NCBI RefSeq assembly: GCF_033193315.1
Contig: NZ_CP136187.1
Span: 2,507,501 to 2,571,500 of the forward strand
Reading direction: 5' to 3'
DNA length: 64,000 bases
DNA from: Agathobaculum sp. NTUH-O15-33
Lineage (GTDB): Bacteria; Bacillota; Clostridia; Oscillospirales; Butyricicoccaceae
Part shown: in pieces, positions 4,585 to 62,710 of the stretch
How the letters are laid out: every line of letters starts with the position of its first letter
Numbering within the stretch: the stretch's first letter is position 1
The notes under the pieces: model-generated
Told to the model about the DNA's origin: nothing
Databases searched by the model: none
The model's input: only the letters and a program-made list of their open reading frames with translations
Translations under genes and position numbers: made by a program

Positions 4585-4843
4585 AGACGCGGCAAGCTAC
4601 CGCGGCTCTCCCCCATGGTGGACAAAACGGCGGCGTGTGGTCACGCCGCAGTGCGCATAGAATGGAAAATGGAGCGAAGCGACGTAAAATCCGTTTTTTC
4701 GGGGGCGTGTACCTCGAAAAAACACCTCGACCCGCGCCACCGGGCGCGTAACCCGGGGGTATCGAGACCGGTTTCTCCGAAACTGGCCGAGTATCTAGGG
4801 GGCACGGGGTGCCCCCTAGACAGCGTGTCGACTTTGTCGACAC
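4585..4843 (+). repeat. Structured intergenic element, copy C, followed by stacked hairpins
   Basis: This gene-free stretch contains several hairpins in series: CGGCGTG-tggt-CACGCCG; the core hairpin at 4693-4723 (GTTTTTTCG, a 13-nt loop GGGGCGTGTACCT, then CGAAAAAAC); CGCGCC-acc-GGGCGCG; a 12-bp stem at 4794-4820; and an 11-bp stem at 4822-4846. The core loop matches copies A (22485-22515) and B (57499-57531), while the stem bases differ but still pair. Confidence 0.6.
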
Positions 4844-4893
4844 GCTAAAAAGGAGGAGGGACAACCGTTTGGTTGTCCCTCCTCCTTTTTAGC
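4844..4893. terminator. Bidirectional terminator with 23-bp perfect stem
   Basis: GCTAAAAAGGAGGAGGGACA followed by ACC, a GTTT loop and the exact complement form a 23-bp stem with A-run and T-run on the two flanks, so it can end transcription from both convergent genes. The stop codon of the carbonic anhydrase gene (4889-4891) lies inside the stem. Confidence 0.85.
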
Positions 4894-10862: not shown

Positions 10863-10906
10863 TTATTATACCAAATTTTCTCGCCCACTGAAAGAGGGAA
10901 TTTAAT

Positions 10907-11031
10907 TAATTAGGAATTAGTAATGAGTAGTTAGTAATTGTGGTATCGCGCGGGGCGCGATCATCAAATCAATCGGCCCGCGGCCATTCCTTGTTTTTAA
11001 TTCCTAATTCCTAACTACTAATTCCTAATTG
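10907..11031. repeat. AT-rich palindromic intergenic element, copy 2
   Basis: It has the same layout as the element at 199-340: arms made of AATTAGGAATTAGTAAT-type words in inverted orientation around TCGCGCGGGGCGCGA and a GC-rich centre. The right arm runs into yunB and supplies its final codon and stop (AATTAG). Confidence 0.75.
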
Positions 11032-22409: not shown

Positions 22410-22418
22410 TTACAGTGC

Positions 22419-22598
22419 GTCAAAGAACCCCTCGCGCCGCAGCGCGCAATAAAATTGAAAGTTGAAGCTTTGCTTCAATTTGACCAAAAACCGGGAGCAT
22501 GTATCTCGGTTTTTGAACAAACCGGCGGCGAAGTGTGCCCAAAGGGCGCGCGCCAGAGCCGGAATTCTCGATCGAAATGGGGCTTTGTTTCGATCGAC
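22419..22598 (+). repeat. Structured intergenic element, copy A
   Basis: The element starts GTCAAAG and ends GATCGAC. Hairpins in order: CGCGC-CGCA-GCGCG; TTGAAGC-ttt-GCTTCAA; the core CAAAAACCG, 13-nt loop GGAGCATGTATCT, CGGTTTTTG (22485-22515); GTGTGCCC-aaa-GGGCGCGC; and a terminal TCGATCGAAA...TTTCGATCGA stem. Copy B at 57418-57595 (opposite strand) shares every block. It lies in the probable 5' leader of tetR. Confidence 0.8.
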
Positions 22599-22622
22599 AT
22601 TTAATTAATTCTGGAGGAGCGC

Positions 22623-32898: not shown

Positions 32899-33131
32899 GG
32901 TATACTAGCCGTTTCGCGGTTAGTATACCACAGCGGCAAGCAATTCCGAAGAGTCAAAACACACCTAAGAGCCGCTGATGGTATAATTAATTCAATCCTG
33001 GTATAATAGGCGCTTTGCGGCTATTATATCACAGCGGCATGCGCAAATAAAGCTATCAGCATTCGCTAAGCGCCGCTGATGGTATAATTAATTTAATCCG
33101 GGTATAATAGCCGTTTTGCGGCTATTATACC
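32899..33131. repeat. 101-bp tandem repeat, 2.3 copies
   Basis: Units begin at 32899, 33000 and 33101, exactly 101 bp apart. Each starts with a hairpin of the form GGTATAATAGCC-gttttgc-GGCTATTATACC; the first two then carry CAGCGGC...GCCGCTG arms and GATGGTATAATTAATT. Hairpin sequences differ between units with pairing mostly kept. The last unit is truncated after its first hairpin. Confidence 0.85.
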
Positions 33132-33201
33132 ATATTTTCGCACCGGTTGCAAAGTGACCGGTCCCCAACGAAAAATAACCGCGCAAACGACCAAATTCTC
33201 G

Positions 33202-35166: not shown

Positions 35167-35175
35167 AATAATAAA

Positions 35176-35439
35176 GGGGCTGTAAAATAAGTTCTCACAA
35201 ATGAATAGAAAACAGTTGCAAAGCGAAAAATGCTACCAATTCTGTCATTCTGAGGAGCGAAGCGACGAGACCGTAGTCTGCTATCCTTAATCTGCCGCTT
35301 AGTGGCATTTTAATGAGTGCGAATCTCGCGCGAACGCGCGGAATTTACGCTGGGAACGCGCGTTCGCGCGAGATTCTTCACTTCGTTCAGAATGACATTT
35401 GGGTACTCTTCTATTTTGCAACAGTTTTTACAGTCCCTT
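35176..35439 (+). repeat. Palindromic repeat element flanking the sucrose cluster, left copy
   Basis: The element begins GGGGCTGTAAAATAAGTTC and ends with TTGCAACAGTTTTTACAG. Internal parts are CATTCTGAGGAGCGAAGCGA, nested TCTCGCGCGAACGCGCG palindromes, and AATGACATTTGGG. The reverse complement of 40892-41106 matches it almost throughout, apart from about 54 extra bases here (about 35270-35325). Confidence 0.85.
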
Positions 35440-40891: not shown

Positions 40892-41106
40892 AAGGCTGTA
40901 AAAAAACTGTTGCAAAATAGAAGAGTCCCCAAATGTCATTCTGAACGAAGTGAAGAATCCCGCGCGAACGCGCGTTTCCAGTGTAAATTCCGCGTGGTCG
41001 CGCGAGATTCTTCGTCGCTTCGCTCCTCAGAATGACAAAATTAGTAGCATTCTTCGCTTTGCAACAGTTTCCTATTCATTTTTGGGAACTTATTTTACAG
41101 CCTCTT
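40892..41106 (-). repeat. Palindromic repeat element flanking the sucrose cluster, right copy
   Basis: This is the same element as 35176-35439 but in the opposite orientation, ending in AACTTATTTTACAGCC. It lacks the roughly 54-base insert of the left copy. It lies between the sucrose promoter and the end of the LacI gene. Confidence 0.85.
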
Positions 41107-41138
41107 TTCGCGCAGCGATCTATTGTAAAAGCAAGATT

Positions 41139-50653: not shown

Positions 50654-50728
50654 CTATCGTTCTCCCTTCCACCTATACATTTCCCGTTTTGCAGTATATG
50701 ACTTCCGGCGTTATTTTGTTCCGCTTCG

Positions 50729-51065
50729 CGGGTCTGCTCCGATAGCGAAGAAACACCCCGTCCGGCTTAGAAGTCTCGCCGTATTGCGGCGGGACTTCGT
50801 GCCATAAGGGGTGTCCCGTTCCTTTGTCCTCCTCGGAGCAGCGCCCAGCGCAGCGGGTCTGCTCCGATAACGAAGAAACACCCCGTCCGGCTTAGAAGTC
50901 TCGCTGCATTGCGGCGGGGCTTCGTGCCATAAGGGGTGTCCCGTTCTTTCGTCCTACTCGGAGCAGAGCCCAGCGCAGCGGGTCTGCTCCGACAACGAAG
51001 AAACACCCCGTCCGGCTTAGAAGTCTCGCCGTATTGCGGCGGGGCTTCGTGCCATAAGGGGTGTT
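50729..51065. repeat. 125-bp tandem repeat, about 2.7 copies, next to tRNA-Leu
   Basis: Units begin with CGGGTCTGCTCCGA at 50729, 50854 and 50979, exactly 125 bp apart. Each carries a long hairpin whose arms are GAAACACCCC and GGGGTGT(TTC), with an inner CGCCG...CGGCG stem. The unit nearest the tRNA ends within a few bases of its 3' end, so the set reads as tandem terminator-like hairpins on the tRNA transcript. Confidence 0.9.
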
Positions 51066-51071
51066 TCTGAG

Positions 51072-51158
51072 TGGTGCCGGTGACCGGACTCGAACCGGTA
51101 CGCTGTCGCCAGCGGTGGATTTTGAGTCCACTACGTCTACCAATTCCATCACACCGGC
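51072..51158 (-). tRNA. tRNA-Leu (anticodon CAA)
   Basis: The 87-nt gene shows acceptor GCCGGTG pairing with CACCGGC, discriminator A and encoded CCA (51072-51074), D-loop TGGAATTGGTAGA, anticodon arm GTGGA-CTCAAAA-TCCAC (CAA), a long class II variable arm CGCTGGCGACAGCG, and T-arm ACCGG-TTCGAGT-CCGGT. It decodes UUG. Confidence 0.97.
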
Positions 51159-57345: not shown

Positions 57346-57386
57346 ACAGGCAAAAGAGTGCCCGAACAAAATGTTCGGGCACTCTT
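57346..57386 (-). terminator. Second copy of the tuf terminator (41-bp direct repeat, distal)
   Basis: The 41 bp here are identical to 57594-57634 and include the stem GAGTGCCCGAACA/TGTTCGGGCACTC. The two copies flank structured element copy B. Confidence 0.85.
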
Positions 57387-57417
57387 CAGACTGTCAAAAA
57401 TAGTTTTTTGACAGTCT
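57387..57417. terminator. Additional hairpin beside element B
   Basis: AGACTGTCAAAAA pairs with TTTTTTGACAGTCT around a TAG loop (13 bp), lying between element B and the distal terminator copy. Confidence 0.6.
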
Positions 57418-57595
57418 GTCGATCGAAACAAAGCCCCATTTCGATCGAAAATTCCGGCTTCTGCGCGCGCCTTACAGGCACACTTGAAGTCGGCTTGTAT
57501 AAAAACCGAGATACACGCTCCCGGTTTTTATGAATTTTGCCGCAAGCGGCAAAATCCTATTTTATGCGCGCTGCGGCGCGAGGGAGTTCTTTGAC
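57418..57595 (-). repeat. Structured intergenic element, copy B
   Basis: On the minus strand it starts GTCAAAG and ends GATCGAC, as copy A does. Hairpins: CGCGC-CGCA-GCGCG; ATTTTGCCGC-tt-GCGGCAAAAT; the core ATAAAAACCG, 13-nt loop GGAGCGTGTATCT, CGGTTTTTAT (57499-57531); GTGTGCC-tgtaa-GGCGCGC; and the terminal TCGATCGAAA...TTTCGATCGA stem. Confidence 0.8.
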
Positions 57596-57634
57596 AGGCA
57601 AAAGAGTGCCCGAACAAAATGTTCGGGCACTCTT
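57594..57634 (-). terminator. Terminator of tuf (41-bp direct repeat, proximal)
   Basis: GAGTGCCCGAACA pairs with TGTTCGGGCACTC, followed on the minus strand by TTTTGCCTG, 48 bp past the tuf stop. Confidence 0.85.
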
Positions 57635-57682: not shown

Positions 57683-58885
57683 TTACTCGTTGATCTTGAT
57701 AACAACGCCGGAGCCAACGGTACGGCCGCCTTCGCGGATAGCGAAGCGGAGGCCTTCCTCGATAGCGATGGGGGTGATCAGCTCAACGTCCATTTCAACG
57801 TTGTCGCCGGGCATGCACATCTCAACGCCTTCCGGCAGAGCGATAACGCCAGTAACGTCGGTGGTACGGAAGTAGAACTGCGGGCGGTAGTTATTGAAGA
57901 ACGGGGTGTGACGGCCGCCCTCTTCCTTCTTCAGAACGTAAACCTGACCGCGGAACTTGGTGTGCGGGTGGATGGAGCCCGGCTTAGCCAGAACCTGACC
58001 GCGCTCGATGTCGGTCTTCTGGATGCCGCGAAGCAGAGCGCCGATGTTGTCGCCAGCCTCAGCGTAGTCCAGCAGCTTGCGGAACATTTCGATACCGGTA
58101 ACAACGGTCTTGCGGGGCGCTTCCATGAGACCAACGATCTCAACTTCTTCGCTCAGCTTCAGCTGACCGCGCTCAACACGGCCGGTAGCAACGGTACCAC
58201 GGCCGGTGATGGAGAATACGTCCTCGACAGGCATGATGAACGGCAGGTCCGCCTTGCGCTCGGGGGTCGGGATATACTCGTCAACAGCGTCCATCAGCTC
58301 GCGGATGCACTTGTACTCCGGAGCGTTCGGATCCTTGGAGTCGGACTCCAGCACGCCCAGCGCGGTGCCGCGGATAACCGGCACGTCGTCGCCCGGGAAG
58401 TCGTAGGAGGACAGCAGTTCGCGAATCTCCATCTCTACGAGATCGAGCAGCTCCTCGTCGTCGACCTGATCGACCTTGTTCATGAATACAACGATATAGG
58501 GAACGCCAACCTGACGGGCAAGCAGGATGTGCTCGCGGGTCTGGGGCATCGGGCCGTCAGCAGAAGAAACAACCAGAATAGCACCGTCCATCTGAGCAGC
58601 GCCGGTGATCATGTTCTTAACGTAGTCAGCGTGGCCCGGGCAGTCGACGTGCGCGTAGTGGCGCTTGTCGGTCTGGTACTCAACGTGAGCGGTATTGATC
58701 GTGATGCCGCGCTCTTTCTCTTCCGGCGCCTTATCGATCGCGTCATAGGCCTGATACTCCGCGTCGCCCGCGAGAGCCAGAACCTTGGTGATAGCCGCGG
58801 TCAGCGTGGTCTTGCCGTGGTCAACGTGGCCGATGGTGCCGATGTTAATATGCGGCTTATTTCTTTCAAACTTTTCCTTAGCCAT
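57683..58885 (-). CDS. tuf: Elongation factor Tu
   Basis: This 400-residue GTPase delivers aminoacyl-tRNA to the ribosome. GTP motifs are GHVDHGKTT (P-loop), DCPGHADYV and MNKVDQ, with switch [13 protein letters not shown]; domains II and III follow and the protein ends SGVVIKINE. It is the last gene of the str-type cluster, 82 bp after fusA. The start follows GGAGGATATCC. Confidence 0.98.
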
Positions 58886-62598: not shown

Positions 62599-62710
62599 AC
62601 GCCGCGCGCCGCAGCACGCATTCCAAAGGCAATGGCCAAAGCGCGCCGGAATCAAAATTCCGGTGTGCTTTGGGCGCAGGGATCGATTGCGAGCGCCGCT
62701 TGCAATCGAA
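62599..62710 (+). repeat. Structured intergenic element, diverged copy D
   Basis: It shares the CGCGCCGCAGCACGCA start, the GTGTGC...GGGCGC stem (62671-62683 region) and a final TCGATTGC...GCAATCGA hairpin with copies A and B, in the same order. The core GCRTGTA loop hairpin is missing and another hairpin (CCGGAAT-caaa-ATTCCGG) takes its place. It lies between rpoC and the L7Ae-like gene, antisense to them. Confidence 0.45.

What the first reader, a model, noticed from the sequence alone, without database searches (positions are those of the whole stretch)
22419..22598. A dispersed structured element with a conserved loop and covarying stems
Copies A (22419-22598, +), B (57418-57595, -) and C (4585-4843, +) share a core hairpin: 13-nt loop GG[A/G]GC[A/G]TGTA[T/C]CT closed by a stem that is AAAAACCG/CGGTTTTT in A and B but TTTTTTCG/CGAAAAAA in C. 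Inside the loop, A-T becomes G-C at the second closing pair. The second hairpin and the GTGTGCC/GGCGCGC stem also change on both sides with pairing kept. This is the pattern of selection for structure, not only sequence copying. A diverged copy D is at 62599-62710. I do not recognise it as a named riboswitch or ncRNA family.
Basis: seen in the sequence. Interest (0 to 1): 0.75.

Follow-up and report, generated by a model that had tools for sequence, protein, structure and literature searches.

The report
Mini-transposon that duplicates terminator hairpins
The repeated folded sequence is a small mobile DNA element that jumps into the hairpins at the ends of bacterial genes and copies the whole hairpin as it lands; its transposase family is known to aim at hairpins.

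Summary
In detail: A, B and C share a multi-hairpin core whose stems covary (28 of 28 modelled pairs show a double change in 95 distinct copies). The reading as an unknown ncRNA is only partly right. The copies belong to a mobile family: 45 exact-loop copies in this genome, model hits in 25 of 25 genomes of the genus. Of 118 elements with enough flank, 74 have a flanking direct repeat, and in 62 of these its centre lies within 1.5 nt of a terminator-like palindrome's centre. A second strain has 5 of 12 tested sites empty, with one palindrome. The ends (CAGNNTGTC(A/G)AAA) match IS1182-family insertion sequences, whose own copies are flanked by palindromic repeats of 20-38 bp (32 of 45 loci with both ends found; mixed-pair control 3 of 1980). 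So this is a MITE of an IS1182 clade that duplicates its target hairpin, whereas IS1272 deletes it. Unsettled: why the core keeps covarying hairpins, how end-less copies arose, and where the transposase is (none detected in this genome). Copy D is inconclusive.

The parts
57594..57634 (-). B: target repeat, left copy (33-bp terminator-like palindrome plus 8 nt), downstream of the EF-Tu gene
   Evidence: identical to 57346-57386; EF-Tu at 57683-58885
57387..57593 (-). B: the mini-transposon, complete except that its outermost 5' bases overlap or were replaced by the target repeat
   Evidence: R1 core at 57499-57581, 101.7 bits
57387..57418 (-). B: terminal hairpin Hp6 (CAGACTGTC...GACAGTCTG)
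   Evidence: sequence
57346..57386 (-). B: target repeat, right copy
22413..22599 (+). A: copy with a 5' transposon end (CAGTGCGTCAAAG), without Hp6 and without a detected target repeat
   Evidence: R1 core at 22432-22516, 81.9 bits
4641..4846 (+). C: C-type copy, left end lost; Hp6 at 4822-4846
   Evidence: R1 4641-4724, 40.6 bits
4847..4890 (+). C: palindrome directly right of the element, the expected right copy of a target duplication whose left copy is missing
62599..62710 (+). D: possible diverged end-less copy, unproven
   Evidence: R1 20.7 bits, E 0.031, same level as chance hits

Best explanation
A, B and C are copies of a non-autonomous mini-transposon (MITE) whose ends belong to a clade of IS1182-family insertion sequences. 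Shown: complete copies lie in terminator-like palindromes and carry a copy of the whole palindrome on each side; empty sites in a second strain of the species have one copy; autonomous relatives with the same ends do the same. Inferred: the palindrome is extruded as a cruciform, an IS1182-type DDE transposase acting in trans joins the element's 3' ends to the 5' foot of the hairpin on each strand, and gap filling copies the entire hairpin. The internal covarying hairpins are cargo of unknown role. Copies without ends (A and C in part) are probably older copies whose ends decayed.
For: Direct repeats at 74 of 118 elements, centred on a palindrome to within 1.5 nt in 62 of 74 (some rows are one insertion seen in two strains). 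13 of 45 sites shared with the second strain, judged against 37 of its 38 exact-loop copies. Contiguous empty sites with one palindrome at 5 of 12 tested sites (L003, L004, L006, L011; L018). IS1182 transposase loci: 59 of 80 had room, 45 had candidate ends on both sides, 32 had an adjacent repeat of 20-38 bp, each a palindrome centred to within 0.5 nt although the script did not ask for palindromes; left and right flanks taken from different loci gave 3 of 1980. Transposases over the IS1182 cut-off (370-394 bits, cut-off 270) with DUF772 and DDE domains. The sister strain's IS1182 fragment (L234, also L361) and MITE copy L010 share 17 end letters with the Chakrabartyella IS.
Against: No IS1182 transposase was detected in the window's own genome (0 matches), nor in G003, G007, G016 or G022, some of them rich in this family; IS copies are often lost from draft assemblies, but G000 is one contig. 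7 of 12 sites were not clean empty sites (L002 partial, L036 split over contigs, L039 inverted flank, four without a match). 13 of 45 IS loci with both ends show no repeat. 44 of 118 elements have no repeat and 12 of 74 repeats are off-centre. A has no target repeat, and B's repeat runs 8 nt past the palindrome. A few hairpin pairs are inverted, not direct (4 of 55). 11 of the 32 IS repeats come from one genome.
Confidence: 0.88

Rival explanations
1. The element is primarily a structured non-coding RNA; dispersal is incidental and the stems covary because the RNA is under selection.
For: Strong covariation; constant CATGT-like loop and a position-specific weak pair, G-T 72, A-T 15, G-A 6, other Watson-Crick 2 of 95; end-less copies between genes of operons (read by eye).
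Against: Transposon ends, target duplications and site differences between strains. G-T 42 against A-C 29 elsewhere. No Rfam match above cut-off. Transcription not tested.
Confidence: 0.15
2. The covariation comes from DNA-level upkeep of inverted repeats (one arm copied from the other during replication or repair), with no function of the folded strand.
For: Stems mostly change Watson-Crick to Watson-Crick with few intermediates. Target palindromes flanking one insertion also differ in a paired way (L007) or in loop orientation (L001, L007, L175).
Against: The loop and the weak pair stay nearly constant across the genus, which arm copying does not explain. Leaving out two poorly aligned pairs gives 34 G-T to 11 A-C (recounted).
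Confidence: 0.35
3. A REP/RAYT- or IS200-type single-strand transposition system moves the elements (Y1 transposase).
For: Hairpin arrays with a conserved weak pair recall REP recognition (recalled, not tested); G000 carries 9 Y1_Tnp matches and one copy sits inside an element.
Against: PF01797 found in 5 of 25 genus genomes while the core is in 25 of 25; long target duplications are not expected of that chemistry (recalled).
Confidence: 0.04

Closest known systems
IS1272 (IS1182 family), Staphylococcus: inverted-repeat-replacing transposition (PMC5678879: abstract, sections 22 and 24, first part of section 29 and found passages read; PMC4923244: found passages and first part of the discussion read)
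   Same: IS1182-family transposase; targets are hairpins, many of them terminators, without a sequence consensus
   Different: IS1272 deletes or replaces the target hairpin and leaves no target duplication; here the whole hairpin is duplicated, the outcome that PMC5678879 drew only as a possible pathway (Fig. 13b legend)
IS1549 and IS1634 (passages of PMC2266710 read)
   Same: Long, variable target repeats (8-514 bp there), for which that 2008 paper says no model had been proposed
   Different: Another family: our transposases score 18.6-25.4 bits against the IS1634 cut-off of 100
MITEs such as BOX, RUP and SPRITE of Streptococcus pneumoniae (passages of review PMC10969869 read)
   Same: Short, non-coding, multi-copy, strongly folded, intergenic, some terminator-like
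   Different: Different sequence and ends; IS1182 does not occur in that review's main text
IStrons (PMC4227781: abstract start seen in a search listing)
   Same: A structured module joined to an insertion sequence
   Different: There a group I intron; no intron family was matched here

Membership tests
MITE of the IS1182-family clade | Short, without a transposase gene, multi-copy | tested here: met
   About 200-bp copies, 45 exact-loop matches; the one long copy inspected (L163) carries a nested IS200-like gene instead
MITE of the IS1182-family clade | Ends shared with an autonomous IS of the family | tested here: met
   CAGNNTGTC(A/G)AAA ends on both; 17 shared end letters
MITE of the IS1182-family clade | Same target type and same target duplication as the autonomous IS | tested here: met
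   Centred palindromic repeats: 62 of 74 MITE repeats, 32 of 32 IS repeats found among 45 loci
MITE of the IS1182-family clade | Transposase present in the same cell | tested here: not met
   None detected in G000; a C-terminal fragment at a contig end in the sister strain G004
MITE of the IS1182-family clade | Movement by that transposase | not testable with these tools
   Needs a transposition assay; site differences between strains are indirect
IS1272-type hairpin replacement | Target hairpin deleted, no target duplication | tested here: not met
   Whole hairpin on both sides; single copy in empty sites
REP/RAYT or IS200 type | Y1 transposase present with the repeats | tested here: not met
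   PF01797 in 5 of 25 genomes, core in 25 of 25
Known structured RNA family (Rfam 15) | Match above the curated score | tested here: not met
   Only a tRNA in the window; ten loci gave sub-threshold matches only
New functional RNA | Covariation beyond shared ancestry, with G-U pairs, and transcription | tested here: inconclusive
   Covariation strong but G-T 42 to A-C 29; phylogeny not modelled, transcription not testable

The most novel reading that the evidence does not exclude
The Hp1-Hp5 core is an independent structured element with its own function (an RNA or single-strand DNA signal with a CATGT-like loop and a fixed weak pair). It lives end-less between genes of operons through the genus and was captured by IS1182 ends, giving a chimera comparable in kind to an IStron: a structured module riding on a hairpin-duplicating transposon.
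Probability: 0.25. Interest if true: 0.8.

Novelty: new variant of a known kind. Interest (0 to 1): 0.58.

Why it matters
Long, variable target duplications of some insertion sequences had no model in the 2008 paper seen here (PMC2266710, passages), and whole-hairpin duplication was only a drawn possibility for IS1272 (PMC5678879). Here natural insertions with matched empty sites show that the duplicated unit is the hairpin itself, so target choice by DNA structure becomes directly testable. Such an insertion leaves a terminator on both sides, which may make it nearly harmless and explain the high copy numbers (inference).

Tried and rejected
Rfam at curated and relaxed thresholds: no credible match at the element. 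RAYT/IS200 mobiliser: disfavoured by distribution. A 1-kb copy thought to be autonomous (L163): an IS200-like gene nested in Hp2. IS1634 as the long-repeat family: far below its cut-off. Orientation bias of end-less copies relative to operons: it looked strong in a first handful read by eye, but the ORF table of 20 copies is mixed (-- 7, +- 4, ++ 4, -+ 4, +. 1; its longest-ORF gene calls are rough) and L340 and L348 point the other way, so I dropped it. RNA versus DNA by mismatch type: 42 G-T to 29 A-C, inconclusive. Loop-pattern hits L059 (G078, the only genome outside the genus) and L056 do not look like elements. A first count of IS target repeats used 46 loci picked by hand (26 with repeats); I replaced it by a rule-based count with a control. 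Literature: nine searches listed no paper whose title or shown abstract start describes an IS1182-family MITE or a demonstrated whole-hairpin duplication; only openly licensed papers are held and most hits were not opened, so this is not proof of absence. A wider variable repeat length for IS1182 in ISfinder is recalled, from no call.

Full report
What is there. They share an ordered set of hairpins: Hp1 (CGCGC-CGCA-GCGCG type), a CATAAAAT-like linker, Hp2, Hp3 with a 7-nt loop GC[A/G]TGTA, Hp4, Hp5 (TCGATCGAAA...TTTCGATCGA type in A and B) and, in complete copies, a last hairpin Hp6. The exact loop pattern occurs 45 times in the 4,005,854-bp genome (25 forward, 20 reverse; reversed-pattern control 1), in an A/B type and a C type. 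BLAST with B and with C returned dispersed matches of each type, 46 and 23 rows including short ones; only 40 candidates were scored in each search.

Structure. On 31 sequences below 90% similarity, taken from 92 usable copies (34 were selected and 3 then left out for another type or a misplaced Hp1), 23 of 28 pairs show a double change, and 132 cells change on both sides against 35.8 +/- 4.6 in shuffles. Model R1 gave 98 matches over 96 held loci, 95 of them distinct: 28 of 28 pairs with a double change and 456 double-change cells against 118.3 +/- 11.4, no shuffle of 500 as high. That second alignment is fitted to the model and leans towards it, and neither control models the tree of the copies. 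One pair in Hp3 is nearly always weak (G-T 72, A-T 15, G-A 6 of 95). Elsewhere G-T and A-C mismatches are 42 and 29 of 2423 cells. So the covariation is strong, but it does not tell RNA from DNA.

Mobility. Most complete copies lie between two copies of a local terminator-like palindrome. Among 118 elements with enough flank, 74 have a direct repeat scoring at least 16, 18-44 bp long, centred on the palindrome to within 1.5 nt in 62 of 74 (several rows are one insertion in two strains). A stricter search that asked for palindromic flanks found 55, of which 48 read better as direct, 4 as inverted, and 3 are self-complementary. The second strain of the species, G004, about 99% identical in flanks, has a copy with matching flanks at 13 of the 45 sites, judged against 37 of its 38 exact-loop copies (one of the 13 was matched on one side only). 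Of 12 joined empty-site queries, G004 holds 5 as one contiguous stretch with a single palindrome: L003, L004, L006 and L011 at 95-100% and the C-type L018 at 98%. The rest: L002 partial at 81%, L036 split over two contigs, L039 with its right flank inverted on both sides of the palindrome, and L008, L017, L032 and L038 without a match.

Source of the ends. An IS1182 transposase profile matched 15 of 25 genus genomes (over the cut-off in 1). Five fragmentary copies lie next to CAGNNTGTC-type ends that abut a palindrome (L232, L233, L234, L235, L245); L234, from G004, ends in CAGACTGTCAAAGAACC, as does MITE copy L010. A scan of species genomes with the L232 fragment kept 80 of 205 relatives. Of these 80, 59 have room on both sides of the match, 45 have candidate ends on both sides, and 32 have a direct repeat directly outside both ends. 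All 32 repeats (20-38 bp) are palindromes centred to within 0.5 nt, although the script did not ask for palindromes; 11 of the 32 are from one genome, Chakrabartyella piscis. Flanks mixed between loci gave a repeat in 3 of 1980 pairs. Three full-length transposases are IS1182 family (370-394 bits, cut-off 270) with DUF772 and DDE domains. The record behind L257, which matches the G009 fragment at 100%, is titled Candidatus Agathobaculum pullicola, so the genus is probably Agathobaculum.

Mechanism. Wan and colleagues (PMC5678879; abstract, sections 22 and 24, first part of 29) report that IS1272, of the IS1182 family, replaces hairpins without duplication. In the legend of their Fig. 13 they draw, as a possibility, joining at the 5' feet of a cruciform, which would duplicate the whole stem-loop. 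The insertions here have that outcome. In the strict set of 55 the cuts fall 0-6 A/T bases outside the last G-C pair. That a cruciform is the substrate, and that an IS1182 enzyme moves these copies in trans, is inference. No IS1182 transposase was detected in the window's own genome, so its copies may now be stranded, or an unrecognised enzyme serves them.

The window copies. B lies downstream of the EF-Tu gene between identical 41-bp repeats that run 8 nt beyond a 33-bp palindrome. A keeps a 5' end but lacks Hp6 and a detected target repeat. C lacks its left end and has a palindrome directly on its right. D is unproven.

The end-less form. R1 hits occur in all 25 genus genomes, 6-109 each and 67 in this one (not all inspected). 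In an even sample of 295 genomes of the order, searched with stricter filters, 9 have hits: 7 of this genus, G026 of the same family with three, and G133 with one weak hit. Some copies lack both ends and target repeats and lie close to gene ends and starts. Whether they are decayed transposons or an independent element is open, and it is the most interesting remaining question.

Noticed in passing
L012, L030, L041, L042, L164, L172, L174, L176; reversed in L070: A nested mini-element (GCTCTCATTTAATC...GGATAGAGGCCTACGGGC) sits inside the stem of Hp3.
   Followed up: no
L014, L143, L171, L175: A second nested mini-element (AGAAGGTGAATT...GGCCGGCC type) sits inside Hp3 or Hp4.
   Followed up: no
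L163 (G000:C1:3928500-3931200): An IS200-like element with a 165-aa Y1 transposase is inserted in Hp2 of a copy; G000 has 9 Y1_Tnp matches, five of them besides this one with the same score.
   Followed up: partly
L001, L007, L175; also L172 by eye: The right-hand target hairpin has its loop inverted relative to the left-hand one, as hairpin opening on the other side, or a later flip, would give.
   Followed up: partly
L053 (G014) and L054 (G015); L340 (G014) and L342 (G018): Apparently the same intergenic spot holds different core types, or the core in opposite orientations, in different species (by eye).
   Followed up: no
G004:C27:19549-19754: The site of L039 has its right flank on both sides of the palindrome, inverted; real or an assembly fold-back.
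   Followed up: no
window 50728-51102: Three tandem copies of a 125-nt unit, the last overlapping the tRNA at 51075-51158.
   Followed up: no
window 35173-35429 and 40902-41107: Inverted repeats of 96 and 109 nt, 92-94% complementary, about 5.5 kb apart.
   Followed up: no
window 32965-33132; 209-274 and 10904-10969: Two other repeated intergenic-looking units with hairpins.
   Followed up: no
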